From a virus, in the IMG/VR virus record IMGVR_UViG_3300018421_000017, positions 19,130 through 83,129 of that record: DNA of 64,000 nt. One strand, written 5' to 3'. The first letter of the stretch is position 1, and each line of letters opens with the position of its first letter. The translations under genes and the position numbers were made by a program. Below the pieces are notes generated by a model. That model saw only the letters and a list, made by a program, of their open reading frames with translations, made no database searches and was not told the origin of the DNA. Shown here piece after piece: positions 19,095 to 57,378 of the stretch.

Positions 19095-19104
19095 ATGACT
19101 TTGT

Positions 19105-20978: not shown

Positions 20979-20979
20979 G

Positions 20980-21693: not shown

Positions 21694-21695
21694 TC

Positions 21696-25225: not shown

Positions 25226-25244
25226 GCATATGAGGTGTTTTGTT

Positions 25245-28926: not shown

Positions 28927-29153
28927 AAAACTGGGAAATCATAGAAGAAGCTATTGAGCTTGGGTCCCGATGTGAAGTCGAGACTTGGCTCGAATTAAAA
29001 AAGATGTTGCTGCTCACTCTGCCGGCTATGGAGAGAACAAAATTTTCCACTAGAGACCCGGACACTAAAATGCAATCCTTAAACCAGCTAGAAAAAGAAA
29101 TAATTGATAATTATAGAAGGAAGACAGGCATCGACTTGGAGGTACCCAGGTGA
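28923..29153 (+). CDS. Small helical protein, unknown
   Basis: 76 residues from the ATG at 28923 (ATGA overlap). Helical and mixed charge (NWEIIEEAIELGSRCEVETW). No motif recognised. It links the 28135 gene and the tagged protein at 29150 in one translationally coupled run. Confidence 0.62.
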   Translation: MKNWEIIEEAIELGSRCEVETWLELKKMLLLTLPAMERTKFSTRDPDTKMQSLNQLEKEIIDNYRRKTGIDLEVPR

Positions 29154-43625: not shown

Positions 43626-43629
43626 TGAG

Positions 43630-43636
43630 ATATTTA
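43630..43636 (+). promoter_or_regulatory. Candidate late promoter motif ATATTTA
   Basis: 31 bp before the TTG at 43668. It lies back to back with the tmRNA promoter, dividing plus and minus transcription. Confidence 0.5.
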
Positions 43637-43667: not shown

Positions 43668-44543
43668 TTGAAGAATTTGCAAGACAAGCTTTTTGAAGCA
43701 GTACTTAAACGTCTGGTGTCTTCTCGTCTTGAAGAGTGTATCATCGTCGCCGGCGAGACGCAGGGTAAAAATATCTTAGCTAAGTCTCGAGACAGAAACT
43801 ATCATGCGCGTGTCGAGATAATCAGAGACCTATTAGATGACGGGACAGAAGTCGTTTACTTTGAGGATCTTGATACTGGGTACGCTGAAGGTATGAACTC
43901 CCACGGCTTGGGAGTGGTGAATGCTGCCCTATCCATCAGCGATGACGAGAATGCAGTGAAAGGTAAAGTGAGATCAGACGATGGTCCCAGAATGATTCAA
44001 GCCTTAAAGCATTCCAGCATAGACGATGCTGTCAAGTCTCTTGTCGGTTATAAGGGCGGCATTAAAGGTCATACTTTCGTAGGGACTCCAGACGCAGTTT
44101 ACAGTATAGAAATGTCATCCGAACACACGCCTGTCATTAATAAGCTTGACCCAACAACAGGTTTCGACGTTCGAACCAACCACGGTAAAGATCACCATGG
44201 TGCTGGGTACACTCCTGACAGACGCCCAAAAGATTACATGTCTTCTAAGATTAGAAAGGCTCAAGCAGAAGTGGAGCTAGCTGGAGTCAATGATTTTGAT
44301 GAAGTCGCTCCTGCTTTAGCGAAGCAACACTTTGATCACGACTCAAATGATAACATGCTTCGTAGAGTACCAGACAAAGCCGGGATGGTAACGACGAGTC
44401 AAGTGGCGATGCATCTTCCAAAAAGAGAGTTCGTATTCTACTACTTCCCAAACGAATGCGATTTTGAGGGCATCGTCGATAAAACACCTGATGATTATGA
44501 ACCCAAGATCAACGTTCGTGTCGTTCGCCGCGACGAGAAGTAG
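43668..44543 (+). CDS. Tagged Ntn-hydrolase-family protein (C45/choloylglycine-like)
   Basis: 291 residues, TTG start with AGGAG upstream. The first 23 residues are the packaging-type helix ending SRLEE, and residue 24 is Cys: CIIVAGETQGKNILAKSRD matches the Ntn nucleophile block C-x(n)-R-x-D. Then MNSHGLGVVNAAL (N-x-x-G-L), KHSSIDDAVKSLVGYKGG and VRTNHGKDH follow the acylase order. Ntn enzymes work only with a free N-terminal nucleophile, so cleavage after Glu23 at the L-E-E site would activate it. It would hydrolyse an amide bond; substrate unknown. Confidence 0.75.
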   Translation: MKNLQDKLFEAVLKRLVSSRLEECIIVAGETQGKNILAKSRDRNYHARVEIIRDLLDDGTEVVYFEDLDTGYAEGMNSHGLGVVNAALSISDDENAVKGKVRSDDGPRMIQALKHSSIDDAVKSLVGYKGGIKGHTFVGTPDAVYSIEMSSEHTPVINKLDPTTGFDVRTNHGKDHHGAGYTPDRRPKDYMSSKIRKAQAEVELAGVNDFDEVAPALAKQHFDHDSNDNMLRRVPDKAGMVTTSQVAMHLPKREFVFYYFPNECDFEGIVDKTPDDYEPKINVRVVRRDEK

Positions 44544-44551
44544 AAGCGTAA

Positions 44552-44579
44552 AGTACATCTGGATGATTCTTCTTATAAT
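44552..44579 (+). promoter_or_regulatory. Promoter AGTACA-N16-TATAAT
   Basis: -35 at 44552-44557, -10 at 44574-44579. Predicted start is about 2 nt before the ATG at 44588. Confidence 0.6.
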
Positions 44580-44587
44580 ACTAAAGG

Positions 44588-45331
44588 ATGGAAAAGAAGA
44601 TTAAGAAAGTGGTGGCGTTTGATTTTGACGACACCTTGGCCGTTACGAACTCACACGTAGGGATAAGGTCTAATTTACTCGAGAATGCTTTCACCATTGC
44701 ATCTCGTCTCGGATTAGATATCGCCTCCCGAGACGAAGACTGGATCTGGGTTAACTCGACCAACTACGAGACTTTTCTGTCTTTTTCTAGTGTGTCGATA
44801 TCTGATTTTGAATATGATTATTCAGAAACAATGGCAGTAGATTTAGATTCAGTGTCCCCAATCCCTTCAATGATTATACAGTTGAAGGAATATCTCGCAG
44901 ATCCCGATTGTTTGGTAATAATCTTGACGGCAAGGGCAGGCTACACTGACGTCTGGAGTCCTGTGAATAAGTGTGTAATTCCCTCCACAAACAGAGAGGG
45001 TATCGCTTCGTTCCTTAATTCACAAGGAATTATCATTCCTGATCACCACATCCATACCGTAGGTGATGTAGCTGCTGAAGGTGGTCTTACATCAGTGGCT
45101 AAGGCGAATGTTTTATCTCATTATGCGATCGCCTACCAACCTGAGGAAATCATATTTTATGATGACAGCGAGAGAAATATCGCTCGCGCGTCCAAGATAC
45201 ACTTGAGAGAAGGTGTAAATTCCAGGATCACGCTAAACTACGTAAAAGACGGTCATGTCGCACGTTCCGTCCAGAGCAATAAAGGGTTAAAACAGTGGTT
45301 GTACCGCATATTTAAGACTATGCTGGAGTAA
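44588..45331 (+). CDS. HAD-family phosphatase, 1
   Basis: 247 residues. HAD motif I VVAFDFDDTLAVT (Asp12, Asp14), motif II VIILTAR, motif III/IV IIFYDDSERNI. C-terminal extension KGLKQWLYRIFKTMLE is helical. Similar core to the tagged HAD at 50598. Possible polynucleotide 3'-phosphatase or nucleotidase; substrate not readable. Confidence 0.82.
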   Translation: MEKKIKKVVAFDFDDTLAVTNSHVGIRSNLLENAFTIASRLGLDIASRDEDWIWVNSTNYETFLSFSSVSISDFEYDYSETMAVDLDSVSPIPSMIIQLKEYLADPDCLVIILTARAGYTDVWSPVNKCVIPSTNREGIASFLNSQGIIIPDHHIHTVGDVAAEGGLTSVAKANVLSHYAIAYQPEEIIFYDDSERNIARASKIHLREGVNSRITLNYVKDGHVARSVQSNKGLKQWLYRIFKTMLE

Positions 45332-46140
45332 TGCCTGTGAAAGACCTGAGAAAACTAGTTTCCCTGCTTTTAGAAGAAGGGTACCAAAGCCATACTTTCG
45401 AGCCCGTAGTTGGTGATATTGTTGCCAATGATAACCCAAACTGTAAGCATCGAGGATCGATTGGCAGAGTCCTAACCATCCAAGCTCTGGATAATGACCA
45501 GGGAAAGACGGCGTCTTACGAATGCTTAAACTCTGGAGATGAGTGGGAAGAAGGTGATGTTTTAACAAAGACGCTCGATCAGTTGGTACCTGCTGTCTCA
45601 AAAGACTTCGCGTATCATATGACGAATGGTCTAGGCATGACTGAATCGATATATCGCCCCGGTTCCAGAGCTTTTTTTGACCTCGTAAGAGAGTTTCGAG
45701 TTTTGTCTCACAGAGGAGCCTACTCACCCTCCTACTTCGAGTCGTACTATCTTTTTGAGACTGACTTGGGCGAATATGGTATGTATGATGGTCACCCGGT
45801 ACCGCTTGACTGGCCAATGCCAGATGAAGACCTTTTCGAAGCAGAATATAAGGGCCGGGATGTCGACCTGAATTCTCCTATGAGATCTTCTGGGCCTAAG
45901 AAGTACAAGGTCTACACCAAGAATGATAAGGGTAACGTTATCCAAGTTAACTTTGGAGACGCCAAGGGTGGGTTATCAGCAAAGATGGACGATGATGATG
46001 CCCGAGCGAACTTTGCTTCTCGGCACAATTGTGATAGTAAAGCAAAGGAAGATAAGACCAAGCCAGGCTACTGGTCCTGTCGGCTGCCCAGGTACTGGAA
46101 AGAGCTTGGGTTTAAGAAGAATAGTTATAGATTTTGGTAG
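45331..46140 (+). CDS. Tagged virion protein with phage-specific C-terminal domain
   Basis: 269 residues. N-terminus MPVKDLRKLVSLLLEEG carries the tag (L-L-E or L-E-E). An SH3-like part follows (VVGDIVANDNPNCKHRGSIG). The C-terminal 75 residues, KKYKVYTKNDKGNVIQVNFG ... RANFASRHNC ... PGYWSCRLPRYW, form a small Cys/Trp domain I recognise from other large-phage head proteins. Probably internal head protein. Confidence 0.68.
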   Translation: MPVKDLRKLVSLLLEEGYQSHTFEPVVGDIVANDNPNCKHRGSIGRVLTIQALDNDQGKTASYECLNSGDEWEEGDVLTKTLDQLVPAVSKDFAYHMTNGLGMTESIYRPGSRAFFDLVREFRVLSHRGAYSPSYFESYYLFETDLGEYGMYDGHPVPLDWPMPDEDLFEAEYKGRDVDLNSPMRSSGPKKYKVYTKNDKGNVIQVNFGDAKGGLSAKMDDDDARANFASRHNCDSKAKEDKTKPGYWSCRLPRYWKELGFKKNSYRFW

Positions 46141-46146
46141 GGGATT

Positions 46147-46929
46147 ATGAGACCATTTAAACAAGTCACGATATCAGAGGGCGTTTTTGTTAGGGAGTTT
46201 TCTGGCGATGTAGACTCAGAAGAGCTCGTCTGGCACCGTGATCAAGAAGACAGACTTATTACGGTGACCGAGTCTGCTGGCTGGAAGATTCAGCGTGATA
46301 ATGAGATGCCCGTGGAGATGAAGTCTGGAGATCAATTCTTTATTCCTGCCCTCGAGTGGCACAGGGTCATCAAGGGCACCGGAAGTTTGTTGATTGAAGT
46401 CGACACCAAGGCCGCGCATCCAAGACAGTACGGGGCATCTCAGGGCTCGAAGCGTGATAAACAGCTTGACCAGACCAAGAAGGATCTAGAGAAAGCAAAG
46501 CAACTTCGTAAGGACGGAAAATCAAAGCAAGCTGATGAGCTTGAGAAAAGAGCATATGCCCGCCGGGACCGCATGGAAAAGCAACAAAGAGAAAAGAAAG
46601 GGTTCGAAAACACTCCTCGTTCCGATACCAAGAAAGAGTCAATCGATAACGACGATGCAGTTTTAAGAGCTTTTGTGGAAGAGCTTCTTCTTTCTGAGAA
46701 GAAGACGAAAATGTCTAAGAAGACAGAAAAGGCTTTGGAGAAAAAAGCGAAAGAAAAGGGATACACTCTTGGATCTGTCAAACAGGAATACAGGAAGGGT
46801 CTCGGCGCTTATTATAGCAGCGGGTCTCGAAAAGGAATGACTGCACATCAGTGGGCCATGGCAAGAGTCAATTCAGCGACTCCCTCTAAGTCTTGGGCTG
46901 TTGTTAAGAAATCGAAGGCAAAGAAATGA
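46147..46929 (+). CDS. Cupin fused to a phage basic C-terminal domain
   Basis: 260 residues. Residues 1-85 are a cupin (LVWHRDQEDRLITV, SGDQFFIPALEWHRVI with the metal-type His). Then a Lys/Glu coiled coil, an internal tag-like helix LRAFVEELLLSEKK (about 173-187), and a C-terminal basic domain YRKGLGAYYSSGSRKGMTAH ending in Lys. An internal prohead-protease cut would release the basic domain from the cupin. Function unknown. Confidence 0.7.
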   Translation: MRPFKQVTISEGVFVREFSGDVDSEELVWHRDQEDRLITVTESAGWKIQRDNEMPVEMKSGDQFFIPALEWHRVIKGTGSLLIEVDTKAAHPRQYGASQGSKRDKQLDQTKKDLEKAKQLRKDGKSKQADELEKRAYARRDRMEKQQREKKGFENTPRSDTKKESIDNDDAVLRAFVEELLLSEKKTKMSKKTEKALEKKAKEKGYTLGSVKQEYRKGLGAYYSSGSRKGMTAHQWAMARVNSATPSKSWAVVKKSKAKK

Positions 46930-47294
46930 AAGTTACAAAAACACATTTGAAGCAGCTGATTGAAACAGCGGTTTTAAAGGAACAAGTTAGGGGATTGCTC
47001 ATAGAGCGGATGTCTGTGGCAACAGTTAGTGACATCACAAGATTTAGACCATCGATAGAAGAGTGGGCTGAAGTTCTTGTGGATGAACTACAGAAAAAAG
47101 CTGAGAGGATGAAGGGGCTTGATGATAAAAGGCGGAATAGCATTATTACTATGCTGGTTGATGCAGTCGCCAAGTCTTTGATCAGCTCGACAGGTTCGAT
47201 GACGGTCTCTAGTCTTGAGCGACAGAAAAAAGACAAAGAAGAAGAACAATACAAAAAGATGAGAGACTCAAGGCGTTACGGATATAGCGGATAA
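46926..47294 (+). CDS. Tagged small helical virion protein
   Basis: 122 residues, ATGA overlap. THLKQLIETAVLKE followed by VRGLLIERM gives two possible [LI]-x-E sites. Then an amphipathic helical body (IEEWAEVLVDELQKKAERMK) and a Lys/Asp/Arg tail. No family recognised. Confidence 0.65.
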   Translation: MKVTKTHLKQLIETAVLKEQVRGLLIERMSVATVSDITRFRPSIEEWAEVLVDELQKKAERMKGLDDKRRNSIITMLVDAVAKSLISSTGSMTVSSLERQKKDKEEEQYKKMRDSRRYGYSG

Positions 47295-47300
47295 AAGACA

Positions 47301-47570
47301 ATGAGAATCACAAGACGACAACTTAGAGACATTATCCGTGAAGCTCTCGAGCTTGATGAAGACGTCCGCAAGCGCGGAGACGAGTGGTGTGCTTATGTCG
47401 ATGACAAGCTGACCAAGGCAGAGAAAGAAAACAACCCCAAGAAATATAAGGGTAAGAAGGTCGGAAGTGTCCAGCGAACCAAGTCAGGCAAAATCAGGAT
47501 GAAGGCTCGTGCTTGCTACAAATCAAAGAAAAAGGCCAACAATGCAATGGCCGCAGCAATGATGGGATAA
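47301..47570 (+). CDS. Tagged small basic protein
   Basis: 89 residues. Tag RITRRQLRDIIREALE, then a strongly basic body (KKYKGKKVGSVQRTKSGKIR, CYKSKKKANNAM). Looks like a DNA-condensing or DNA-bound internal head protein. Confidence 0.7.
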   Translation: MRITRRQLRDIIREALELDEDVRKRGDEWCAYVDDKLTKAEKENNPKKYKGKKVGSVQRTKSGKIRMKARACYKSKKKANNAMAAAMMG

Positions 47571-47573
47571 CAA

Positions 47574-47918
47574 ATGTCTACTAGCCCGGAGCTTTACACA
47601 TATCGAGCGTTCGTTAGGAAAGTGTACGATGGGGATACGGTCACAGTTGACGTCGATCTCGGGTGGTCAGTTGTGCTCAAAGCTCAAAAGATCCGCCTCG
47701 TCCGCATTAATGCTCCAGAAGTTCGTGGAGAACAGCGCACGGAAGGTCTAAAATCTAGAGACGCTTTACGAGACAAAATCGGAAACAAGTGGGTAAAGAT
47801 CAAAACTGAAAAGGATAAGAAGGGTAAATTCGGCCGATGGCTCGGAGAGATCTGGCTTGAAGACGAGTGCGTCAATGATTGGCTTCTCAAGGAAGGTCAT
47901 GCTGAGGAGTATAAATGA
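47574..47918 (+). CDS. SNase-like (thermonuclease family) nuclease
   Basis: 114 residues. Staphylococcal-nuclease OB fold: VRKVYDGDTVTVDVDLGW (Asp21), IRLVRINAPEVRG (catalytic Arg and Glu49), KFGRWLGEIWL (second Arg). Catalytic residues look intact. No tag or signal peptide, so it acts in the infected cell or is packaged by another route; host-DNA degradation is the simplest role. Confidence 0.85.
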   Translation: MSTSPELYTYRAFVRKVYDGDTVTVDVDLGWSVVLKAQKIRLVRINAPEVRGEQRTEGLKSRDALRDKIGNKWVKIKTEKDKKGKFGRWLGEIWLEDECVNDWLLKEGHAEEYK

Positions 47919-49210
47919 GTCTACTGCTAGAATACAGTAAGTACAATCCTGTGATAAGGGATAGAAGCTATATCACTGAAGTTTTAGGGATTAAAGTCCC
48001 TCTGTACGAGTCGTATGAGTACTATACTCCAGAGCTACAGTCAAGGATTATTCGAGAGCACTTGCTTCTTGAGGGCTTCTTTGACGGTTTAAAGAGACTG
48101 AAGGATGACGCTCTATTATTCGGTAAATCTCTTAAGCAGATAATCACTAAACCTGACCTCATTGGATCGTTTGTGGCGGCCCTCAATAAGATGGTACTTA
48201 ACAAGATGATTAGACCGATAGGGTCTTTTCTTAAGATGGTCAAGGAGAAGCTTACTGAGTTGGGGGCGGACAAGTTTCCGACGTTCATAAAGTTTGCAGA
48301 CGGCTTGCTTACAAGCCTCAATAAGATCTTAGAAAAAGTGAATGGTCTAGATGGGTGGAAGAAAGCTGTGGGAGCGATGAGCTTAGCATTATCCATGAAA
48401 TACATCTGGAACGAGATCGGTGAGCTGATCGAAGAAGGTCAAAAGAAGATTGGAGAAGTGGTACCAGCTTTTGACATAATCAAAGCAGCAGCGGAAGGAG
48501 CTGCTGAGGCCGCAGGCGATAAACTGGAGAAAGCCAAGGAGGCTGTAAAGGGTCTTTTGAGCTGGCTGAAAGAGCAGATAGTAGAGAAAGCCGGTGAATT
48601 TATAAAAGAGAAGCTTAAGGGTCTAGCTACGTCTGTTTTAGGGTCTGCGATATCAGGTGGTGTTAAAAAAGTCTGGGACACCCTTACAGCTCTTTACGGA
48701 GGAGCGAAATTTGTTATGGATACGTTAAATCCAGCGTTCAAGCGTTTTACACACAAAGTGACTGCCGAAAGTACACTTCGTGAATACGTAAGAGAGCTTT
48801 TATCTGAGCAAGCCAGTTACGGGTCAGCAGACGGCCAGTCTCGGATTGTCAAAGTCAATAACATGAAGATTCGTATAGACTTAGAAGATCTAGACTACAG
48901 AGCCACTCAGCACTCTAGAGAGCGTCAGCACCGACATAAGGATTCTTCCGGCCGCGGATTCAAGATATCGGGTGATTCCATCCAGAGAGCTATTGACGCT
49001 GCAATTGGTAACATCATAAACGACTATGCCAATGGCGAACTCAGGAACAACGAGCGGTTCTTGATCGCCGCGAAAACAGGGAAAGGTGACCCGCTGAATA
49101 TTGTTGGCGCTCTGAATATGCAGAAGGGTCCTGACGATTTTGCAGTTATTACAGTAATGAGAAAGCAGAATTTTATGTCTGATCTGCCGACGTACGAGGT
49201 GAGTCTATGA
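47915..49210 (+). CDS. Large tagged virion protein with C-terminal toxin-like domain
   Basis: 431 residues, ATGA overlap. N-terminal segment with LQSRIIREHLLLEG, long Ala/Gly/Lys helices (about 60-280), then an internal copy of the tag, STLREYVRELLSEQ (about 290-303). The last 125 residues, MKIRIDLEDLDYRATQHSRERQH followed by ISGDSIQRAI and PLNIVGALN...FAVITVMRK, resemble the small alpha/beta domains of polymorphic-toxin RNases or DUF4258-like toxins. Cleavage at the internal site would free it. Enzyme call is tentative. Confidence 0.6.
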   Translation: MSLLLEYSKYNPVIRDRSYITEVLGIKVPLYESYEYYTPELQSRIIREHLLLEGFFDGLKRLKDDALLFGKSLKQIITKPDLIGSFVAALNKMVLNKMIRPIGSFLKMVKEKLTELGADKFPTFIKFADGLLTSLNKILEKVNGLDGWKKAVGAMSLALSMKYIWNEIGELIEEGQKKIGEVVPAFDIIKAAAEGAAEAAGDKLEKAKEAVKGLLSWLKEQIVEKAGEFIKEKLKGLATSVLGSAISGGVKKVWDTLTALYGGAKFVMDTLNPAFKRFTHKVTAESTLREYVRELLSEQASYGSADGQSRIVKVNNMKIRIDLEDLDYRATQHSRERQHRHKDSSGRGFKISGDSIQRAIDAAIGNIINDYANGELRNNERFLIAAKTGKGDPLNIVGALNMQKGPDDFAVITVMRKQNFMSDLPTYEVSL

Positions 49211-49515
49211 AGCTGTTATCATGGCTCAAACATCGATTAAGCCACAAACTAGAACATTTCTCCCTAGAAAATCTTAAACGTTTCCTGAAAGAAAACGGTC
49301 TCGCGTTTGTTGTTATATTTCTAGCGTGGGAGATTATCGAGGATGTACTTTTCCCGATCCTCTTTACCGTTTTAGGAACATACGTCCACCCTGTGTTTTA
49401 CGCAGGTGTTCCAGCAGCTTGGCTCCTTTGTTTACACTGGCTAGCAGTACCACTGATGTGGGGTGCATGGGTAAAGATTAGAGGAAAAAGGAAAGACAAT
49501 GAGCCTTCTTCGTGA
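49207..49515 (+). CDS. Small membrane protein with two helices
   Basis: 102 residues. An amphipathic N-terminal region then GLAFVVIFLAWEIIEDVLFP and PAAWLLCLHWLAVPLMWGAW, basic tail. Could be a holin or an envelope-targeted protein; unknown. Confidence 0.6.
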   Translation: MKLLSWLKHRLSHKLEHFSLENLKRFLKENGLAFVVIFLAWEIIEDVLFPILFTVLGTYVHPVFYAGVPAAWLLCLHWLAVPLMWGAWVKIRGKRKDNEPSS

Positions 49516-50023
49516 ATACATCAAAGAGATCCTAAATGAGGGTGTTGAGTTCCATGAGCTTGATTCGCCCTTAACCTATAATAGATCACGTAACGTGAAG
49601 CGCTTGGCATATTGTGATACATCAGTCACCGAACCGCCAGAAGGTCATGACACATATTTCACGGAATATCAGAGGATGGAAAGATATGGAAAAACCGGCC
49701 GGCGTCTGAAGAAGCCACGAAAAGGTGAGCTAATCCCAGGAGTTTCGAATGTTTGTGTTATCGGCTTTCTTGACTATCACCACTACGGTAAAACTGCAGA
49801 AGGAAAGGACATGTGGTACATTGACTACATGAAGACCCGGGGTGATTCAACAGGTCAAGGCGTTGCCAGTAAACTCATAGATGAATTCTTTGAGAGGTAC
49901 GTCGATCCAGACGGTGGGTACGTTCACTTCGGCAAGATGATGAGAAAAGAGATCGGGCATCTTAAAGACAAGATGGCCGAGAAGTACCCTAATGCAGAAG
50001 TAATCGGGGCTGTGAATTATTGA
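49499..50023 (+). CDS. Tagged GNAT-like acetyltransferase, 1
   Basis: 174 residues. Tag MSLLREYIKEILNE, then a GNAT core: VCVIGFLDYHHYG, MWYIDYMKTRG and the acetyl-CoA loop DSTGQGVASKLIDEF. First of nine consecutive tagged genes (49499-54977) each overlapping the next. Packaged acetyltransferase acting on a host target is the inference. Confidence 0.72.
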   Translation: MSLLREYIKEILNEGVEFHELDSPLTYNRSRNVKRLAYCDTSVTEPPEGHDTYFTEYQRMERYGKTGRRLKKPRKGELIPGVSNVCVIGFLDYHHYGKTAEGKDMWYIDYMKTRGDSTGQGVASKLIDEFFERYVDPDGGYVHFGKMMRKEIGHLKDKMAEKYPNAEVIGAVNY

Positions 50024-50094
50024 TGAGACTACTTCGCGAATACATAAGAGAGCTGCTGAAAGAATCTGTTGATCCCAAGATCATGTCAATGATC
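50023..50094 (+). repeat. 72-nt tag repeat, copy A
   Basis: First 24 codons of paralog A. Nearly identical DNA at 51143-51214 and 53581-53652, more conserved than the rest of the genes. Confidence 0.8.
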
Positions 50095-50601
50095 GATCGT
50101 GCAGAAAAGGCTGGCTTCAAGGTCGTTGTTAGGAGTGGTTATACGGCTGTGTACGACCCTAATATCGATGTTTCAGACTGGTATGAGGGCTATATTGGTC
50201 CAGCAAACAGGGTAGCAGGTATATCTTGGAACCCAAGTCCGGGAGCACATGGGCAACCTTGTTCTGGCGCCAAGGAAGTATCAGTTTCCGGCGCCAAAGA
50301 ATTCGGGATGGGTCCATTAGCTTATGACGTTGCGATCGAAGCTTCGGGTGGTCTAATGTCTGACAGGCTGGAGGTTTCGAAAGACGCAAGAAATGTGTGG
50401 AAACATTACATGAAGAAGCGACCTGACGTGATAATCCAACAACTTGACAACCTGAAAAACGAGCTCACCCCAGAAAGAGAAGACAACTGTGATCATCCAG
50501 ATGGATTTTCGGTTAGCTCACCACTTACAAAAATGTACTCTAAGATTGGAACGCCAGTCATGGATGAGCTGCGACGACGAGGGATGTTGGAAGAACAATG
50601 A
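50023..50601 (+). CDS. Tagged acetyltransferase-like protein, paralog A
   Basis: 192 residues from the ATG at 50023. MRLLREYIRELLKESVDPKI then SMIDRAEKAGF; body with GMGPLAYDVAIEASGGLMSD and DARNVWKHYMKKRPDVII, ending GTPVMDELRRRGML. This body is found three times here (also 51143, 53581) and I associate it with GNAT-fold proteins of large phages. The catalytic base is not assigned. Confidence 0.68.
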   Translation: MRLLREYIRELLKESVDPKIMSMIDRAEKAGFKVVVRSGYTAVYDPNIDVSDWYEGYIGPANRVAGISWNPSPGAHGQPCSGAKEVSVSGAKEFGMGPLAYDVAIEASGGLMSDRLEVSKDARNVWKHYMKKRPDVIIQQLDNLKNELTPEREDNCDHPDGFSVSSPLTKMYSKIGTPVMDELRRRGMLEEQ

Positions 50602-51146
50602 GACTACTTCGTGAGTATATAAGGGAAATCTTGAGTGAGAACAAGCTGCGTGTCTTCGATTTTGATGACACACTTGCTGTCACTGATTCCATGATTATAC
50701 TTACTAAAGCGACGGGTGAGCAGATAAAGCAGACTCCTGGAGAGTGGGCCATATACATACCTGAACCCGGCGATGAGTTCGATTACAGCGAGTTCGGCGG
50801 CGAGTTAATGAACCCTCGAGAAATCAAAGACTACATGAATATCCTCCGCCGCGTTTTGGGAGCAGGTACAGACGGTCGCAAAGCTGTGATCTTAACTGCT
50901 CGTGCTGAAGTTGCTCGACAGGGCATCATTAACTTTTTACAAGACATTGGTCTCAACGTAAACGACATTGAGATTGTAACGCTTGGTGAATCCGACCCAC
51001 AATTTAAGGCGCGATGGATTGAAGACAAGATAAATAGCGGTTATGACGATGTGTATTTTGTCGATGACTCTGATAAAAATATAGCGGCTGTGCAAGCGCT
51101 AGCTGTGAAATATCCCAATATAAAGTTGAGGACACAACTGGTATGA
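50598..51146 (+). CDS. Tagged HAD-family phosphatase, 2
   Basis: 182 residues. Tag MRLLREYIREILSEN is fused directly to HAD motif I RVFDFDDTLAVTDS (Asp21, Asp23); motif II AVILTARAE, motif III/IV VYFVDDSDKNI. The HAD core starts five residues after the L-S-E site, so cleavage would yield a complete enzyme. Resembles the untagged HAD at 44588. Confidence 0.82.
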   Translation: MRLLREYIREILSENKLRVFDFDDTLAVTDSMIILTKATGEQIKQTPGEWAIYIPEPGDEFDYSEFGGELMNPREIKDYMNILRRVLGAGTDGRKAVILTARAEVARQGIINFLQDIGLNVNDIEIVTLGESDPQFKARWIEDKINSGYDDVYFVDDSDKNIAAVQALAVKYPNIKLRTQLV

Positions 51147-51214
51147 AACTATTGCGCGAATACATAAGAGAGCTACTGAAAGAATCTGTTGACCCCAAGA
51201 TCATGTCAATGATT
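51143..51214 (+). repeat. 72-nt tag repeat, copy B
   Basis: First 24 codons of paralog B; differs from copy C by only a few bases. Confidence 0.8.
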
Positions 51215-51760
51215 GACAGAGCTGAAGCTGCAGGTTACAAAGTCAGACTGTTTGTGGTCCCAAAGCAGGGAGGATCTGTCAGGTTGGTTGAACCCGGTGA
51301 CAAACCTCTACGACTGGACGGCAAAAACGCAATAGGTTCGGTTGAATGGAGAAAACCAAAGTTCAGCGATCATGGCAATTGCTCAGGCGGACAAAGCGTA
51401 GGTTGGTCTGAAGCTGATGGTGGATTCGGGCCGCTGTTATATGATGTTGCGATCGAAGCATCAGGCGGTTTAATGCCCGATAGATTCGAAGTATCCGGTG
51501 AGGCAGAGGCAGTGTGGGATAGATACATGAACTCTCGTTCTGATGTTATTGTTCGCCAGCTGGATATCTTACCTGACTACGAAGAACCACAGATCACCCC
51601 CGACAATCCCAACGATGATTGCAGCCAAGTTCCAGCGCACGACATGCTGAAGGACAAGTGGCATACATCTTCCCTCAGCAAGATATACAGCAAGTCAGGT
51701 ACTCCCGTTATTGATGAACTGATCAAGCGCGGCATGTTGATAGATAATAGGACAGTGTGA
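51143..51760 (+). CDS. Tagged acetyltransferase-like protein, paralog B
   Basis: 205 residues, ATGA overlap. Same first 24 residues as paralogs A and C except residue 2, and body GGFGPLLYDVAIEASGGLMP, AEAVWDRYMNSRSDVIVRQL, ending GTPVIDELIKRGML. The middle part is diverged, so the N-terminal segment is much more conserved than the domain it carries. Confidence 0.68.
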   Translation: MKLLREYIRELLKESVDPKIMSMIDRAEAAGYKVRLFVVPKQGGSVRLVEPGDKPLRLDGKNAIGSVEWRKPKFSDHGNCSGGQSVGWSEADGGFGPLLYDVAIEASGGLMPDRFEVSGEAEAVWDRYMNSRSDVIVRQLDILPDYEEPQITPDNPNDDCSQVPAHDMLKDKWHTSSLSKIYSKSGTPVIDELIKRGMLIDNRTV

Positions 51761-52122
51761 TGAATCTACTGCGCGAGTACGTAAGGGCTTTGCTTACTGA
51801 AAAGACTATCGCCATTGGCCAATGTTATCCCCATGCGATCAAGATGGCTCAACAGTCATCTGATGAAGAGTGGGATGATCTAGACAAGTTCAAGGTGGTC
51901 CACGGAAAAGTGACGAACAAATGGAATGATGAGTCATATGAGCATGCTTGGGTTGAAAAGGGTGACATGATATTCGACTGGCAAACACACGTAACAAAGC
52001 CAGAAGGGATTCCAAAAGCTGTGTACTACGATAACTTCCAACCTGAAGCTTATGAAGAATACACTGCTGAAGAAGCTATAATCAATTGTACTAAGTCAGG
52101 GCAAGCGGGGCCTTGGAGATGA
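51760..52122 (+). CDS. Tagged papain-like cysteine protease-type protein
   Basis: 120 residues from the ATG at 51760. Tag MNLLREYVRALLTE, then GQCYPHAIKMA (Cys22), VVHGKV, YEHAWVEKGD (His62) and IFDWQT (Asp73): a Cys-His-Asp order like transglutaminase/NlpC-type enzymes. Small and compact. Predicted injected protease or amidase; target unknown. Confidence 0.65.
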   Translation: MNLLREYVRALLTEKTIAIGQCYPHAIKMAQQSSDEEWDDLDKFKVVHGKVTNKWNDESYEHAWVEKGDMIFDWQTHVTKPEGIPKAVYYDNFQPEAYEEYTAEEAIINCTKSGQAGPWR

Positions 52123-52625
52123 ACCTGCTTCGCGAATACATAAGAGAGTTACTGACCGAGGAATCTACTACTGTTTCTCTACACAGAGGGTCAACTGAAG
52201 ATTACTTCAGAGTGAATTTCAGCGTGGACGGTAGAATGGTTGGTTATGCAGAGGTCAACTCAACTCGTAGGTACTCGAACTGCCAAGAAAATGTTATGGA
52301 ACTTGAACAATCTCCAGAGTACATTGAAGCCAAAGAACGGCACGAGGCGACAAGCAAGTGGAGCTGGTCACCAAAGATGTACGTTACGAATAACGTCTGG
52401 ATCCCCAACGAAGCTGACAGAGGGAAAGGTTACGGTAAGTTGATATATCAGGCAGCCATTGACCAGGCAATTCAATACGCAAGGTCTAGCGGTGGTGTGT
52501 TTATCGGTTCGGACGCATGCGATTCTGCCGGTTCCACCTCAGCTGATGCGGGCCGTGTATGGAGTTCACTGGGACAACAGTTCGGTGCTAGCTCAGGCCA
52601 ACTGATATTCGTGAGGACAAACTAA
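52119..52625 (+). CDS. Tagged GNAT acetyltransferase, 2
   Basis: 168 residues from the ATG at 52119. Tag MNLLREYIRELLTEE, then GYAEVNSTRRY, MYVTNNVWIPNEADRGKGYG with the acetyl-CoA loop R-G-K-G-Y-G, KLIYQAAIDQAIQYA. A clear GNAT fold. Acceptor unknown. Confidence 0.75.
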   Translation: MNLLREYIRELLTEESTTVSLHRGSTEDYFRVNFSVDGRMVGYAEVNSTRRYSNCQENVMELEQSPEYIEAKERHEATSKWSWSPKMYVTNNVWIPNEADRGKGYGKLIYQAAIDQAIQYARSSGGVFIGSDACDSAGSTSADAGRVWSSLGQQFGASSGQLIFVRTN

Positions 52626-53584
52626 TGAACCTACTCCGCGAGTACATAAGAGAGCTGCTGTTAAAAGAAGTCAAGTCCTCTGAACTTCCATGGGCAGAAC
52701 TGTCTGATATTTTACGTAAAAAATTTCCTGGGTTTGGCGAAGAAGTAGAGATGCCGGCAGGAGGGAAACGTAAGCCTTTCGAGATAGAGCAGAGGACGGT
52801 GGCAGATAGGGGTCCCCAGAGATTGGCTAGCTTTACCATCGGATATGGTGACTTCTCCTACGATAAGCCTGCCACTAAATTCTCTGACGCTGATTTAGAC
52901 GCTGTCGTTGATGAGATCGATAAGTGGGCTGCTAATTTTGGATTACATGTGGCAAGAGACCAACTCGCCATGAATAGCAATATCGCAATGCTCAAAGTCG
53001 GGCTGATGGATCTGGAGACAGACGAAGTCGAGAAACCAGCGAAACTATATCATGTAACAGATCCTGTGACAGCTGAGACGATTCTCTCGCAAGGTTTAGA
53101 ACCTCAGTCAGCTAGACGGCGAGGCAAGGCTGGAAAAGCAGGTGATATGATGGGTGCAGCAGGGAGAAGTTACCCTGGCAGAATATTCATGTTCACAGAT
53201 GCACAGACTGCCCTCGCTAGAGCTTCGAAGACTGCAAAGATTATGCATAGGCTTTCCTTTGTTAGGGATGTCTTAGAAGACGAAGCAGAGTACGAGAAGG
53301 GCGCCTCTCAAACAATCGGTAAGTCAGAAACCCCAGTTGTTTTAGAGATTGACGGATCTGCTGTCGGTAAAGTAATGGCAGATCCAGATTTTGAGATGGG
53401 TAAGGGTGCCGTATTCTCAACAGATGCAGTTCCACCATCTGCGATATCGAAGTATAAAGATGTAGACAGGGGCAGCTTCGAATACGATTGGCGAGATAAC
53501 TATAAAGTAAGAGAGATGCTCAGAAGTGATTATGGCGGCACAATGTCAAAAATCAAAGCATGGGAGCAGAGCCAAGGATTATGA
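52625..53584 (+). CDS. Tagged ADP-ribosyltransferase-like protein (KptA/DarT-type fold)
   Basis: 319 residues. Tag MNLLREYIRELLLKE, an N-terminal alpha/beta part to about 135, then LYHVTDPVTAETILSQGLEP (141-160), GRIFMFTDAQTALARAS (185-201), VVLEIDGSAV and GAVFSTDAVPPSAI (261-274), the order of ADP-ribosyltransferase folds where the first His and last acidic/Thr region bind NAD. T4 packages its ADP-ribosyltransferase Alt with a similar tag, which supports the analogy. Activity is inferred. Confidence 0.65.
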   Translation: MNLLREYIRELLLKEVKSSELPWAELSDILRKKFPGFGEEVEMPAGGKRKPFEIEQRTVADRGPQRLASFTIGYGDFSYDKPATKFSDADLDAVVDEIDKWAANFGLHVARDQLAMNSNIAMLKVGLMDLETDEVEKPAKLYHVTDPVTAETILSQGLEPQSARRRGKAGKAGDMMGAAGRSYPGRIFMFTDAQTALARASKTAKIMHRLSFVRDVLEDEAEYEKGASQTIGKSETPVVLEIDGSAVGKVMADPDFEMGKGAVFSTDAVPPSAISKYKDVDRGSFEYDWRDNYKVREMLRSDYGGTMSKIKAWEQSQGL

Positions 53585-53652
53585 AACTACTACGCGAATA
53601 CATAAGAGAGCTACTGAAAGAATCTGTTGATCCCAAGATCATGTCAATGATT
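53581..53652 (+). repeat. 72-nt tag repeat, copy C
   Basis: First 24 codons of paralog C; same block as copies A and B. Confidence 0.8.
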
Positions 53653-54132
53653 GATAGACTCGAAGCGGACGGGGGATATGTTAGAATTAGCAAGAACGCT
53701 GCAAGAGTTATTATTGATGGACACAATGTCGCGTTTGTCCAATTCGAAACACCGGGAGTTTGGTCCAAAGGTGAGTGTTCGGGCGCGAAAATAGTATCTT
53801 ACTCTGAAGCGGAAAGAAGTTACGGTCCTTTAGCATATGATATCGCCATTGAAGCAACAGGCGGACTTGCACCAGATCGCGAAGAAGTTTCAGGAGATGC
53901 AAAAAACGTTTGGTCTTACTACGAAAAGAATAGACCTGATGTAACAATCGCCCAGCTAGATGATGAAAACAATATGTTGACCCCTGACGGTGGAGACAAT
54001 TGCAATCAGAAGTCTGCCATGCTGGATGCAGAAAGTTACCACTTTGATAGATCACCGCTCAGTAAGGTATACAGGAAGTCAGGTACGCCCGTTATAGATG
54101 AGTTGCGGAAACGAGGGATGTTGAAGGAATGA
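53581..54132 (+). CDS. Tagged acetyltransferase-like protein, paralog C
   Basis: 183 residues from the ATG at 53581 (ATGA overlap). MKLLREYIRELLKESVDPKI tag, body SYGPLAYDIAIEATGGLAPD, AKNVWSYYEKNRPDVTIAQL, ending GTPVIDELRKRGML. Nearly identical DNA to paralog B over the first 72 nt. Confidence 0.68.
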   Translation: MKLLREYIRELLKESVDPKIMSMIDRLEADGGYVRISKNAARVIIDGHNVAFVQFETPGVWSKGECSGAKIVSYSEAERSYGPLAYDIAIEATGGLAPDREEVSGDAKNVWSYYEKNRPDVTIAQLDDENNMLTPDGGDNCNQKSAMLDAESYHFDRSPLSKVYRKSGTPVIDELRKRGMLKE

Positions 54133-54977
54133 ATCTACTTCGTGAATACATAAAAGAGGTATTAAGCGAGGTAACAGCTCTTCCTCAGGAATACTTCACT
54201 GCAATCGATGCCGCTGTGTCTTCTTCAAATTTTTGGGAAGAGCCGAATTCTCAAGATGATATAGACTACTATGAGTCTAAGGCAGGAGGGGTCATGGCTA
54301 CTCCTGCCGCAGAGGCTCTTTCTGAGGCTCTAGAAGGGGCTATGGAAGAGGTTGGTCTAGACATGGACATATTGGTTAGGTCACACGATACAGATGATCT
54401 GATGGGAATGTCTCTACATCCCGAGCATCCTGCTTGGCCTAATAGATGGCTCATCGACGCGAAGTGGTACGTCTCAAAAGAACGCCCGGGAAGAAGCACT
54501 ATTGACATAGAGATGATGACATCAGAGGATGAAGACAACATTTCTCAAGCTCTGAACACCAGTGAGCTAGTCCGTCATATTACAGCAACAGTGAGACACG
54601 AGCTAGTACATTATCGACAGATGAAAAAACAGGCTGCCCATAAGGGGCTGGATGACACCGCCGCTTTTGAGGAAATGCTGAAAGATCCCCGCCAGATTCC
54701 GCCGGGCTCCGCGGATGATCCGGAGTGGCAGAAGAAGTACTTGAGTTCTCATATAGAGATCGATGCTCACGCTCACGATGCCGCCGAAGACTTGATCGCT
54801 GTATACTCCGCTAAAGAGATTGACGCAATACTCAGTAAAAAGGTTGATCTGTCTGATGATAGACTGCCCAACGCTGTTAAGCACTATATCGAGGTTCTTG
54901 GGCCCGACGATAAATCAACTCGTAAGTTCATGAGTAAGCTTTATACACAAGTCGAAAAGATGAAAAGTAGAAGATAA
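54129..54977 (+). CDS. Tagged zinc metalloprotease-like protein
   Basis: 282 residues. Tag MNLLREYIKEVLSE. Zinc motif H157-E-L-V-H161 in ATVRHELVHYRQMKK, and SSHIEIDAHAHDAAEDL about 75 residues later as possible third-ligand region. Predicted to be delivered with the DNA. Target unknown; protease activity rests on the HExxH. Confidence 0.7.
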   Translation: MNLLREYIKEVLSEVTALPQEYFTAIDAAVSSSNFWEEPNSQDDIDYYESKAGGVMATPAAEALSEALEGAMEEVGLDMDILVRSHDTDDLMGMSLHPEHPAWPNRWLIDAKWYVSKERPGRSTIDIEMMTSEDEDNISQALNTSELVRHITATVRHELVHYRQMKKQAAHKGLDDTAAFEEMLKDPRQIPPGSADDPEWQKKYLSSHIEIDAHAHDAAEDLIAVYSAKEIDAILSKKVDLSDDRLPNAVKHYIEVLGPDDKSTRKFMSKLYTQVEKMKSRR

Positions 54978-55006
54978 CAGGAATACTTAACACTAAAGGT
55001 AGTACA

Positions 55007-55645
55007 ATGGACGTTCTAAGACAGTTTATAAGACAAATAATTCTTGAGCAAATAGAGCAACCCGCTCCTGAAGCCTCTTTACCAAAGGGTGAATGGGTTT
55101 CTGTTGAGGCAGGAGACCCTATGAGATCTGTTATCGTTGACGACCTTTATGATATGCTGCAGTCGACATACGCTCCAATTGGTGGTCACTTTAAAGTCAA
55201 GAAGCCGTCCGACCTTGAAAGGTACAGGTTCTGGGTAGTTGCAGACATCGACGAAGATCCTGAACCTGACGTCGCTTTATTTGCGAAGCCTGATATCGGT
55301 GGTACGAAGATGGGCGCCGCCGCGAATGATGGTACAGCTGCAGCAGCTAACGCTTACAAAGACAAATCTTCTGAGTTGAGAGCTGGCGGCTCTATTGGCT
55401 CTGGCTCGAACTGGTGGGGTGAAGTTAGCGGCAAGCCCGCTTATGCGATGCTTAAGCGTGGTGCGCCAGCAGTCGAGGATGAAGCTGTAGTAATGCAGTT
55501 ACTTGCTGGGGATGATATTATCTTTCACGGAGCTCATCCTGACCCGAATGCTCCAGCCCTTTTTAAGAGCGTGAACGGGTGGTATACCAAGAAGTTCGGA
55601 GCAAAGTCATCTACCAAGATTATTCTTGGGTCTCCGAGTTTGTAG
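55007..55645 (+). CDS. Tagged GNAT-like protein, 3
   Basis: 212 residues. Tag MDVLRQFIRQIILE. The body YAPIGGHFKVKKPSDLERYR, FWVVADIDEDPEPDVALFAK, NWWGEVSGKPAYAML and GWYTKKFGAKSSTKIILG follows an acetyltransferase-like family I know only from phages. No clear acetyl-CoA loop, so activity is uncertain. Confidence 0.62.
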   Translation: MDVLRQFIRQIILEQIEQPAPEASLPKGEWVSVEAGDPMRSVIVDDLYDMLQSTYAPIGGHFKVKKPSDLERYRFWVVADIDEDPEPDVALFAKPDIGGTKMGAAANDGTAAAANAYKDKSSELRAGGSIGSGSNWWGEVSGKPAYAMLKRGAPAVEDEAVVMQLLAGDDIIFHGAHPDPNAPALFKSVNGWYTKKFGAKSSTKIILGSPSL

Positions 55646-55757
55646 AAACGCGTTCCAGGTGACTAAAAATTAAATTTTAGATTGTAACCGAAAACCAGTA
55701 CTATTTCATGATCTAATTTACGGTTCTCCCTACTATATGTTTGTAAGGAGGTTAAGC
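55646..55757 (+). other. Short intergenic region before lipoproteins
   Basis: 112 nt. Holds an AT-rich inverted repeat (CTAAAA...TTTTAG) and the AAGGAGG ribosome site of the lipoprotein; I see no confident promoter or terminator. Confidence 0.5.
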
Positions 55758-56153
55758 ATGAAAAAAGCAGTTGTAACTATAGTCTGTGGGTTGCTCTTAG
55801 GCGGGTGTGAATTCGGAGCAGCTCCCGTTGTATACTACCCGGCTCATCATCACGAGCCCCCTGTTGTTGTGGTAGAAGAATCGACCGACGTACCACAGGT
55901 AATTGAAGAGCAAGTTACCGTAGTAGAGACGTATACATACACGAGCTGTGATCCGTATTTTGAAACCCTAGAGGCACCTTTCTATCATCAGCCTGTTACA
56001 TGTACTGACTATGGGTACGAAGTTGGCTATTGTTGCACTTGGGAATACCTCAATGGTGACTATGCTGGATGCTCTCATGAATCTTGCTTTTGGGAAGATA
56101 TTTGCGAATGGGAGTTCGTAATTGAAGAATGTGTTTATGACGATTACTACTAG
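55758..56153 (+). CDS. Cys/Tyr-rich lipoprotein
   Basis: 131 residues from the ATG at 55758 with a perfect AAGGAGG. Signal peptide and lipobox VCGLLLGGC (Cys about 18). The mature part is short, acidic, with a His cluster (YYPAHHHEPP) and eight or more Cys with many Tyr and Glu. Outer-envelope lipoprotein; could be superinfection exclusion, a spanin or metal binding. No family recognised. Confidence 0.7.
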   Translation: MKKAVVTIVCGLLLGGCEFGAAPVVYYPAHHHEPPVVVVEESTDVPQVIEEQVTVVETYTYTSCDPYFETLEAPFYHQPVTCTDYGYEVGYCCTWEYLNGDYAGCSHESCFWEDICEWEFVIEECVYDDYY

Positions 56154-56173
56154 AGAAAGGAGGTAAGTAAAGT

Positions 56174-56485
56174 ATGAAATACATCGCGTTTTTGTCTGTT
56201 TTATTTTTTTCGACTGTAGGCTGCGCCGCCACGTTTCACTCACCATACTATGTTTATGATGACTGTGAGTACGAGTACGTGTATGTGCCCGCAAAAAAGA
56301 TTGTGACTGTGTACGGTCCTGGCTATCACCATGGTTACAGTCACCACCACAAAAGCAGCTATAGAGTTGTGAAACATGGACCTTCCTATCACAAGCATAA
56401 GAAGCACAAGGGTTACAAGAAATATAAGACCCATCCACACAAAAAAGTATACAAGAAGAAAGTATACAGTCACAAGCATCACTGA
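56174..56485 (+). CDS. His/Lys/Tyr-rich lipoprotein
   Basis: 103 residues, AGGAGG upstream. Signal peptide with lipobox LFFSTVGC (Cys17). The mature part is extremely rich in His, Lys and Tyr (YHHGYSHHHKSSY, YHKHKKHKGYKKYK), opposite in charge to the acidic lipoprotein just upstream. The pair may interact electrostatically or bind metal. Unknown. Confidence 0.7.
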   Translation: MKYIAFLSVLFFSTVGCAATFHSPYYVYDDCEYEYVYVPAKKIVTVYGPGYHHGYSHHHKSSYRVVKHGPSYHKHKKHKGYKKYKTHPHKKVYKKKVYSHKHH

Positions 56486-56519
56486 TACAGTTTAACCTGT
56501 AATCCTCCACCTGGTCCGC

Positions 56520-56526
56520 ATATTTA
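56520..56526 (+). promoter_or_regulatory. Candidate late promoter motif ATATTTA
   Basis: 30 bp before the chosen GTG at 56557. Confidence 0.45.
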
Positions 56527-56556
56527 TTATTGTTGTTTGATCTTAAGGATTGTCTT

Positions 56557-57378
56557 GTGAACGAATCTACAATAAGAACCTACGTACGTGAGTGTCTTCT
56601 AGAGTCCAAAGAGAAAGTACGCGGTTATGTGAAACCAGACTCTAGTTTCTTTACTCTTGACGAGTGGCAGCTGGCTGTTGAGATGCTCCTAGAACTCCAG
56701 AAAGAAGGTGTCGATACCAGAGGTGGACAGTATACAGACCCAAGACTCATAGCGATCGTAGAGAGATATTTCGGATACCAACTAAACGATGAGGTCGAGA
56801 GATGGGACCTTCTAACAAAGAAGAACGTCCTTGATTTTGTGGAGGACTTTGTCAATCACCGCTTTTGGGGGTTGAGGAAAGAGTTTGGTCACTACTTTAA
56901 GGACATAAATCGCTTGCGATTTGCGTATTTCTACTCTCGAGGAGATCTAGAGCCATATGTCCTGATGGATGATGAGTTCACTACTCAATTGTACGGTTCC
57001 ACCAACAACCCAAAAGAACTTCTCCACTACACAACAATCAGAGGTGTTGAGAGGATTCAAAAAGCCATTGATTCTGGTTCTGCGTTTGATATATCAACGT
57101 TTACAGTCGCAGAGAGACCGTTTTTTCGTCCCGATTCGAATATCATCATAAAGCTTTTGGGAAATGTTCGGGCTGGCTTCAGAAGCGACATAAAATCTAT
57201 GGCTGTTGATACCGGCCGCCGTGCTTGTAATCTTTATCGTCTAGAGTACCCTGGCGAAGACTTCAATAACATCTGTTACGAGTTAGAAACCTGTGACGGT
57301 GAGCTAAGGACGTCTTTGTGGAATGAATATATTGCTACTCCAATCGAGATATTGGAAGTTTTGAAGGTGAAAGTATGA
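56557..57378 (+). CDS. Tagged virion protein, possible ADP-ribosyltransferase-like
   Basis: 273 residues from the GTG at 56557, which has AAGGA upstream and aligns the tag STIRTYVRECLLES with others; a TTG at 56530 is possible. C-terminal half: LLHYTTIRGVERIQKAI, FDISTFTVAERPFFRPDSNI, LLGNVRAGFRSDIKSMAVD, LWNEYIATPIEIL. The YTT...STFT...WNEYI order could be an ADP-ribosyltransferase core, but this is weak. Confidence 0.6.
   Translation: MNESTIRTYVRECLLESKEKVRGYVKPDSSFFTLDEWQLAVEMLLELQKEGVDTRGGQYTDPRLIAIVERYFGYQLNDEVERWDLLTKKNVLDFVEDFVNHRFWGLRKEFGHYFKDINRLRFAYFYSRGDLEPYVLMDDEFTTQLYGSTNNPKELLHYTTIRGVERIQKAIDSGSAFDISTFTVAERPFFRPDSNIIIKLLGNVRAGFRSDIKSMAVDTGRRACNLYRLEYPGEDFNNICYELETCDGELRTSLWNEYIATPIEILEVLKVKV

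What the first reader, a model, noticed from the sequence alone, without database searches (positions are those of the whole stretch)
43668..57378. A family of about 24 proteins with a shared N-terminal helix ending in [LI]-x-E: a predicted head-packaging tag and injected effector set
Seen: LLREYIRELLKE, LLREYIKEILNE, LLREYIREILSE, VLRQFIRQIILE, IRTYVRECLLE and looser forms start genes at 49499, 50023, 50598, 51143, 51760, 52119, 52625, 53581, 54129, 55007, 56557, and also 43668, 45331, 46926, 47301, 19149-21696, 23576, 25245, 27259 and 29150. The same helix sits in front of unrelated domains (GNAT, HAD, ADP-ribosyltransferase-like, cysteine protease, metalloprotease). Known: T4 internal proteins and Alt carry an N-terminal capsid-targeting sequence cut by the gp21 protease after [LI]-x-E. 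Inference: this is the same logic on a much larger scale.
Basis: partly seen in the sequence, partly recalled or inferred. Interest (0 to 1): 0.93.

Follow-up and report, generated by a model that had tools for sequence, protein, structure and literature searches.

The report
Phage cargo proteins with head-entry tags
A large uncultured phage puts a short removable address tag on dozens of unrelated proteins, most likely so that they are loaded into its head, trimmed (and in one case perhaps switched on) by the head's own protease, and carried into the next cell with the DNA.

Summary
The shared N-terminus is real. In the window 17 of 100 genes pass a profile threshold that 0.5% of shuffled N-termini pass; one I judge chance. 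The window belongs to a phage also held at 280.9 kb, where 45 of 382 genes pass (about 37 plausible by eye). The predicted gp21-like protease, absent from the 83-kb fragment, is in that genome and in 8 of 8 records searched (three of this phage, five of relatives). Near it lie two small head genes with tag-like N-termini. Two tests that did not use the tag support a cut after [LI]-x-E. ORF 43668 is a C45-like N-terminal-nucleophile hydrolase; before its catalytic Cys, P1 is Glu in 21 of 23 and P3 Leu/Ile in 20 of 23 clusters of relatives. A zeta-toxin-like kinase has [LIV]-x-E at its domain start in 36 of 37 clusters. The capsid protein has [LIV]-x-E where T4 gp23 is cut (6 of 6). This works like T4 capsid targeting, with other tags and on a larger scale; the protease may also activate an enzyme. 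Packaging, cleavage and injection are inferred: no virion data.

The parts
43668..44543 (+). C45-like N-terminal-nucleophile hydrolase; leader 43668-43736 ends L-E-E, nucleophile Cys24 codon at 43737; GATATTTA at 43629-43636
   Evidence: NCBIfam C45_proenzyme E 1.5e-9, below curated cut-off; model pLDDT 92, residue 1 on the nucleophile of solved relatives; [LI]xE|C in relatives
45331..46140 (+). weaker tag DLRKLVSLLLEE; C-terminal domain shared with phages immuto, Melnitz, HTVC008M
   Evidence: score 11.6, threshold 10.7
46926..47294 (+). tag VLKEQVRGLLIE
   Evidence: score 15.4
47301..47570 (+). type-B tag MRITRRQLRDIIREALEL, small basic protein
   Evidence: score 21.1
47915..49210 (+). 431-aa protein with internal tag TLREYVRELLSE from 48773 (residue 287) and RIIREHLLLE from 48044: possible two-part precursor
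49499..50023 (+). tag LLREYIKEILNE + GNAT-like body
   Evidence: score 24.1; Pfam GNAT E 0.006, below cut-off
50020..50601 (+). tag LLREYIRELLKE + unknown body (paralogue of 51143, 53560)
   Evidence: score 25.6
50598..51146 (+). tag LLREYIREILSE + HAD phosphatase-like body
   Evidence: score 25.3; PHROG E 8.9e-10
51143..51760 (+). tag LLREYIRELLKE + unknown body (paralogue)
   Evidence: score 25.6
51757..52122 (+). tag LLREYVRALLTE + unknown body
   Evidence: score 19.1; no family hit
52113..52625 (+). tag LLREYIRELLTE + GNAT-like body
   Evidence: score 23.9; Pfam GNAT E 0.005, below cut-off
52625..53584 (+). tag LLREYIRELLLKE + unknown body
   Evidence: score 22.7; no family or PDB hit
53560..54132 (+). 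tag LLREYIRELLKE + unknown body (paralogue)
   Evidence: score 25.6
54129..54977 (+). tag LLREYIKEVLSE + body with HELVH (HExxH)
   Evidence: score 22.2; motif read from the translation
55007..55645 (+). tag VLRQFIRQIILE + unknown body
   Evidence: score 21.8
56530..57378 (+). tag TIRTYVRECLLE + unknown body
   Evidence: score 17.8
27259..28122 (+). weaker tag LLSEKIAALLLE
   Evidence: score 11.5, threshold 10.7
29150..30358 (+). tag FIREQVRKILLE, 402-aa candidate internal protein
   Evidence: score 18.0
19149..20567 (+). 472-aa protein with C-terminal RWQKLAG (from 20532), shared with the scaffold-like protein; TATATTTA at 19104-19111
23576..24688 (+). 370-aa protein with internal LLERWTRLAGI (RW from 24176)

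Best explanation
A T4-type head-targeting system enlarged into a cargo platform. A leader of about 12-25 residues, in two related types (MxLLREYIRELLxE and MKITKRQLRRIIREE), resembles the N-termini of two small head genes. It docks its carrier into the assembling core (inferred). The gp21-family protease then cuts after [LI]-x-E and frees the mature protein in the head (inferred from junction conservation). The mature proteins leave with the DNA at infection and act on the new host (inferred from T4). For the C45-like hydrolase the same cut would create its N-terminal catalytic cysteine, so head maturation would also be the enzyme's on-switch (inferred).
For: S77 protease in 8 of 8 records (three of this phage, five of relatives, two of those alike), in 12 of 18 records with the hydrolase, in 11 of 13 large type-B contigs (13 of 50 given, chosen for size). 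His and Ser blocks of T4 gp21 conserved in the five sequences compared. Head genes: portal, S77, two small tag-like genes, scaffold-like, capsid protein. Capsid protein site aligned with T4 gp23: [LIV]xE in 6 of 6. Junctions: hydrolase P1 Glu 21 of 23, P3 Leu/Ile 20 of 23 clusters; kinase [LI]xE 33 and [LIV]xE 36 of 37. Residue 1 of the mature model sits on the nucleophile of isopenicillin N acyltransferase, NAAA, acid ceramidase, bile salt hydrolase and penicillin V acylase. Octamer [TG]ATATTTA (22 on +, 4 on - in G001) precedes the scaffold-like gene and five tagged or cargo operons. T4 precedent: PMC9026906, PMC5694885 (passages).
Against: No virion proteome, cleavage assay or injection data. 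The window's own record has no S77 match, as a fragment might. Six of 18 hydrolase records have none; they also match no Gp23, S78 or Terminase_6N (the Gp23 control rang nowhere), so this decides little. Two hydrolase clusters break the rule (RTA|C in L101, M|C in L137). Ntn hydrolases can cut themselves; Glu|Cys self-cleavage is recalled for B. subtilis PurF. The phage also has a ClpP-like protein matching head-maturation-protease families (E 1.1e-24), so S77 may not be the only candidate. The order of the small head genes differs from T4, where 67 and 68 precede 21. Six of 23 listed genes fail the threshold. Clusters share descent, so binomial values overstate. Amphipathicity of five tags is not clearly above shuffles (fractions 0.02-0.28). 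The octamer's strand bias is weaker in G005 (30, 11) and absent in G004 (19, 17).
Confidence: 0.83

Rival explanations
1. Core only: the tag takes carriers into the prohead core, but they act in assembly or DNA condensation and are not injected effectors.
For: Tag-like N-termini are on head genes; of 10 tagged G001 proteins outside the window given to Pfam, 9 have no hit above cut-off.
Against: Some carriers are enzymes with no evident assembly role: hydrolase, zeta-toxin-like kinase, HAD.
Confidence: 0.13
2. Self-cleavage: the conserved [LI]xE before the hydrolase Cys serves autoproteolysis of that enzyme family, and the head protease is not involved.
For: C45 enzymes are named autoproteolytic (NCBIfam); Glu|Cys self-cleavage is recalled for PurF; two clusters lack the motif.
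Against: The same [LIV]xE junction occurs in a kinase of another fold that needs no new N-terminus and at the capsid protein site; P3 Leu/Ile is the gp21 rule.
Confidence: 0.2
3. The leader is a docking helix for some other phage or host partner (for example an RNA polymerase or a compartment), and [LI]xE is part of that helix.
For: The leader type is similar over many proteins and no packaging data exist.
Against: In hydrolase and kinase relatives the helix varies or is almost absent (MIKE|C, MDLLE|G) while [LI]xE stays; link to head genes.
Confidence: 0.07
4. Plain paralogy: one expanded protein family.
For: 50020, 51143 and 53560 are paralogues.
Against: Bodies are otherwise unrelated: hydrolase, kinase, HAD, GNAT-like.
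Confidence: 0.02

Closest known systems
T4 internal proteins and Alt with capsid targeting sequence, cut by gp21 (PMC9026906, PMC3012670, passages)
   Same: Short N-terminal leader on unrelated proteins, [LI]-x-E site, gp21-family protease, T4-like head genes
   Different: About 37 plausible carriers in one genome by eye, two leader types unlike T4's (T4's recalled), enzyme cargo whose active site begins at the cut, a further C-terminal motif
Ejection proteins of giant phages phiKZ and SPN3US (PMC5694885, passages)
   Same: Many head proteins cut after Glu by a gp21 relative; two paralogues sharing an identical N-terminal 15 residues
   Different: Their sites are S/A-x-E or A-x-E and most propeptides exceed 100 residues; here P3 is Leu/Ile and leaders are short
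C45 / acyltransferase Ntn hydrolases (isopenicillin N acyltransferase, NAAA, acid ceramidase)
   Same: Fold and nucleophile position in the model
   Different: Known ones are autoproteolytic; here a head-protease motif stands before the Cys

Membership tests
T4-type capsid targeting system | gp21-family (S77) head protease in the genome | tested here: met
   8 of 8 records, E 9e-28 to 9e-25, three of them this phage; no match in the 83-kb fragment
T4-type capsid targeting system | Short N-terminal leader shared by unrelated proteins | tested here: met
T4-type capsid targeting system | [LI]-x-E at the leader/mature boundary | tested here: met
   hydrolase 20 of 23 clusters with Leu/Ile at P3, 21 of 23 with Glu at P1; kinase 33 of 37
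T4-type capsid targeting system | Carriers packaged in the head, leader removed | not testable with these tools
   needs virion proteomics
T4-type capsid targeting system | Carriers ejected into the host | not testable with these tools
   needs infection experiments
phiKZ-type ejection protein system | S/A-x-E cleavage and long propeptides | tested here: not met
   P3 Leu/Ile, short leaders; definition from PMC5694885 and PMC9026906 passages
C45-like Ntn hydrolase (ORF 43668) | Ntn fold with Cys nucleophile at the mature N-terminus | tested here: met
   Cys invariant in 34 of 34 aligned (rows were cut to begin at it)
C45-like Ntn hydrolase (ORF 43668) | Curated family score | tested here: not met
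   NF040521 37.7 bits against cut-off 85; Pfam AAT 13.1 against 23.2: a distant relative, not a named member

The most novel reading that the evidence does not exclude
Head maturation is the activation step of a stored enzyme arsenal: the gp21-type protease cuts right before the catalytic cysteine of a C45-like zymogen (and before other enzyme domains), so enzymes become active only inside the closed head and reach the next cell switched on. The rule holds across many uncultured T4-like phages, and a second tag, RWxxLAG, shared with the scaffold-like protein, marks further cargo.
Probability: 0.5. Interest if true: 0.9.

Novelty: new variant of a known kind. Interest (0 to 1): 0.8.

Why it matters
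If right, a readable code (leader ending in [LI]-x-E plus an S77 protease) would let cargo carried in phage heads be listed straight from metagenomes, where most such genes are unannotated. Which phage proteins are injected would become a question that sequence can address, there would be natural targeting leaders beyond T4's, and a case in which capsid maturation switches on an enzyme could be tested.

Tried and rejected
Protease inside the window's own record: S78 and S77 searches negative. The ClpP-like protein at L001 15811 matches head-maturation-protease families (E 1.1e-24) but lies by ribonucleotide reductase and endolysin genes; I did not use it and cannot exclude it. A 22-residue tag query against cultured phages found nothing, probably too short. 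The first structure model of ORF 43668 failed (6 sequences, pLDDT 38) and was not used. Two scans of cellular genomes confirmed no relative of the hydrolase, so its junction could not be compared with untagged cellular forms. PDB sequence searches of 43668, its alignment, 52625 and 51757 gave nothing useful. Cultured-phage searches with 50598 and 52625 found no match. The cause of the RTA|C exception (L101) is open. The T4 late promoter TATAAATA is not strand-biased in G001 (3 and 3). The tag profile gave few hits in cultured relatives: five of 218 genes in about 148 of 160 kb of immuto, six of 58 in part of RM378 (all at or below 15.1), none of 15 in a T4 stretch, none of 13 in an MA9V-1 stretch. 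Literature: nine searches listed, in titles and starts of abstracts, no paper on this tag set or on head-protease activation of such a hydrolase; I read passages of five papers only.

Rows dropped: 3 of 80 hydrolase loci without an identifiable Cys in range; 1 of 80 kinase loci (L308). The tool reported 273 and 463 relatives but gave only the best 80 of each. In one search only 22 of 37 kinase clusters fitted the first pattern (19 of 22 [LI]xE); one search uses one fixed register for all 37. G008's S77 was not picked up by my pattern and is missing from that alignment.
Full report
WHERE IT IS. The window is part of an 83,129-base IMG/VR record. The same phage is held at 280,913 bases as G001 (99.986% identical over all 83,129 bases; window position = G001 position minus 149,927). 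Among cultured or named phages its capsid protein is closest to Microcystis phage Mel-JY01, an uncultured phage, Flavobacterium phage immuto (47.5% over 61%) and Rhodothermus phage RM378. A host in Bacteroidota is a guess from this.

THE OBSERVATION. The leader is not chance. A strict pattern finds nine N-termini, all in frame on the + strand. A profile from eight window 12-mers, applied to genes outside the window, finds 7 of 282, 19 of 403, 5 of 277, 5 of 156 and 0 of 158 N-termini where shuffles expect 0.2, 0.25, 0.4, 0.2 and 0.05. Internal slices give 10 of 4343 in all; in G005 and G004 that rate is above the shuffle rate, so the shuffles are somewhat lenient. An iterated profile gives 45 of 382, 45 of 403, 38 of 277, 12 of 156 and 7 of 158 genes in G001, G005, G004, G007 and G008, 6.9 false hits expected in all; it was retrained on its own hits, so I rest and use as a list. 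By eye about 37 of the 45 G001 hits are plausible; ORF 43668, head gene 108187 and the internal copy in 47915 come on top. There are two leader types: MxLLREYIRELLxE (window cluster) and MKITKRQLRRIIREE (G001 11-14 kb and 238-242 kb). An exact type-B pattern occurs in 76 stretches of 50 viral contigs by my count.

THE PROTEASE. PF03420 (T4 gp21 family) matches in 8 of 8 records, E 9e-28 to 9e-25: three hold this phage, five hold relatives, two of which look alike. It matches in 11 of 13 large type-B contigs and 12 of 18 contigs with the hydrolase. In G001 it is a 206-residue protein (PHROG head maturation protease E 6.6e-49; portal and major head protein nearby). The GExxHP and G[IV]SSRG blocks of T4 gp21 are conserved in the five sequences compared (catalytic roles recalled). 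The phage also carries a ClpP-like protein that matches head-protease families.

THE HEAD LINK. After the protease come one gene and then two small genes that begin MAKMTRNDLKSLVKECLFEILLE (like type A) and MAKNLKLTPALLKKLVMEEKAKLME (like type B). T4 has its small core genes 67 and 68 just before gene 21, so the order is similar, not the same. The first passes the profile in G001, G005, G004 and G007, the second only in G005 and G007. That each leader type mimics one core protein is inference.

CLEAVAGE SITE, THREE TESTS NOT BASED ON THE TAG. (1) Hydrolase: ORF 43668 resembles C45 proenzymes (E 1.5e-9, 37.7 bits, cut-off 85). A model of the part from Cys24 on, from 34 sequences, has pLDDT 92. 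Best solved matches are 3gvz (Foldseek E 7.4e-10) and isopenicillin N acyltransferase (1.5e-8). In the second alignment residue 1 falls on residue 103 of that enzyme, 126 of human NAAA, 143 of acid ceramidase, 2 of bile salt hydrolases and 1 of penicillin V acylase; entry titles there name the Cys126, Cys143, Cys2 and Cys1 mutants. In 23 clusters of relatives the residue before this Cys is Glu in 21, and P3 is Leu or Ile in 20; P2 and P4 to P8 vary. Exceptions are RTA|C and M|C. Some have a leader plus a second site, such as MKNLIRSILNEELHREVIHE|C. (2) Kinase: a tagged G001 protein is zeta-toxin-like (37.2 bits, cut-off 22.3). In 37 clusters of relatives [LI]xE stands directly before the domain in 33, [LIV]xE in 36; the last (L322) has FLKE|A off register. 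Its relative in cultured phage HTVC008M reads MIPFILKE|GLYDPG. (3) Capsid protein: the T4 gp23 cut (65-residue propeptide, PMC5694885 passages) aligns with LRE, VSE, LRE, LKE, LRE and LNE in G001, immuto, G005, G007, G004 and G008, the last across an insertion. Binomial values (5e-23 and 2e-14; 2e-41 and 8e-24) treat clusters as independent and are too small.

EXPRESSION. An octamer [TG]ATATTTA, picked from 8-mers enriched before genes, is strand-biased in G001 (22 on +, 4 on -), with 14 intergenic places in 8.5% non-coding DNA. It precedes the scaffold-like gene 109645, some unassigned genes (92591, 125254, 150453 and others) and the tagged or cargo operons at 11361, 12020, 169076 (window 19149), 193595 (window 43668) and 238299. 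The bias is weaker in G005 (30, 11) and absent in G004 (19, 17). A late promoter is inference.

A SECOND TAG. RWxx[LIM]AG sits at the C-terminus of the scaffold-like protein in six of six phages (G001, G005, G004, G007, G008, immuto; G008 assigned by size and place) and in nine further proteins of G001, G005, G004 and G007, among them window 19149 (C-terminal) and 23576 (internal). The looser pattern also gave two unrelated hits, and 6 in reversed proteins of four genomes. Several copies follow an [LI]xE closely (LLERW, LILERW, LIMERW). A core- or shell-binding tag is a proposal.

SPREAD OF THE LEADER. Some unrelated carriers share leader codons (50020 and 52625: 8 of 10 identical, 3.0 expected), others do not (50598 and 51143: 2 of 9, 2.8 expected) (52 pairs). 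So the leader seems sometimes copied as DNA and otherwise held at the protein level.

MECHANISM. Shown by computation: leader, protease gene, junction rule, enzyme fold, gene neighbourhood. Inferred: docking, cutting, packaging, ejection, action in the host, activation of the hydrolase. T4 is the tested precedent: the first ten residues of IPIII are enough for packaging and gp21 cuts after L/I-x-E (PMC9026906, passages). A 2026 jumbo-phage review (passages) describes co-injected phiKZ head proteins; the terms 'capsid targeting' and 'prohead protease' do not occur in it.

VERDICT. It works like the T4 capsid targeting system and meets its testable features; packaging and ejection remain untested. 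Scale, leader sequences, enzyme cargo and the likely activation step differ: a new variant of a known kind.

Noticed in passing
G005 176269-180150; G004 139110 and 141082: Two neighbouring, very similar major capsid protein genes in each of two relatives.
   Followed up: no
window 25230-26234: Matches an RNA polymerase sigma factor family over 30 residues (PHROG 351, E 5e-4) in the 19-30 kb region; a packaged sigma factor would be notable.
   Followed up: no
L001 15811-16413: Stand-alone ClpP-like protein matching head-maturation-protease families (E 1.1e-24) beside ribonucleotide reductase and endolysin genes.
   Followed up: no
window 487, 19104, 22868, 43629, 63878: Octamer [TG]ATATTTA, possible late promoter element.
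   Followed up: partly
L250 and L251 (phages Melnitz and HTVC008M): Relatives of this phage's cargo genes sit among proteins whose N-termini (MKKFSEIIEA, MKSFKDF) look to me like T4's targeting sequence (recalled), so the same cargo may travel under different tags.
   Followed up: partly
window 58238-59308: DUF192 domain (E 2.6e-28) followed by a region with a visible HExxH.
   Followed up: no
window 57375-58241: By eye a cysteine-synthase-like protein directly after the tagged cluster.
   Followed up: no
window 60357-60434 and 63463-63540: Two tRNA-Met (CAT) genes.
   Followed up: no
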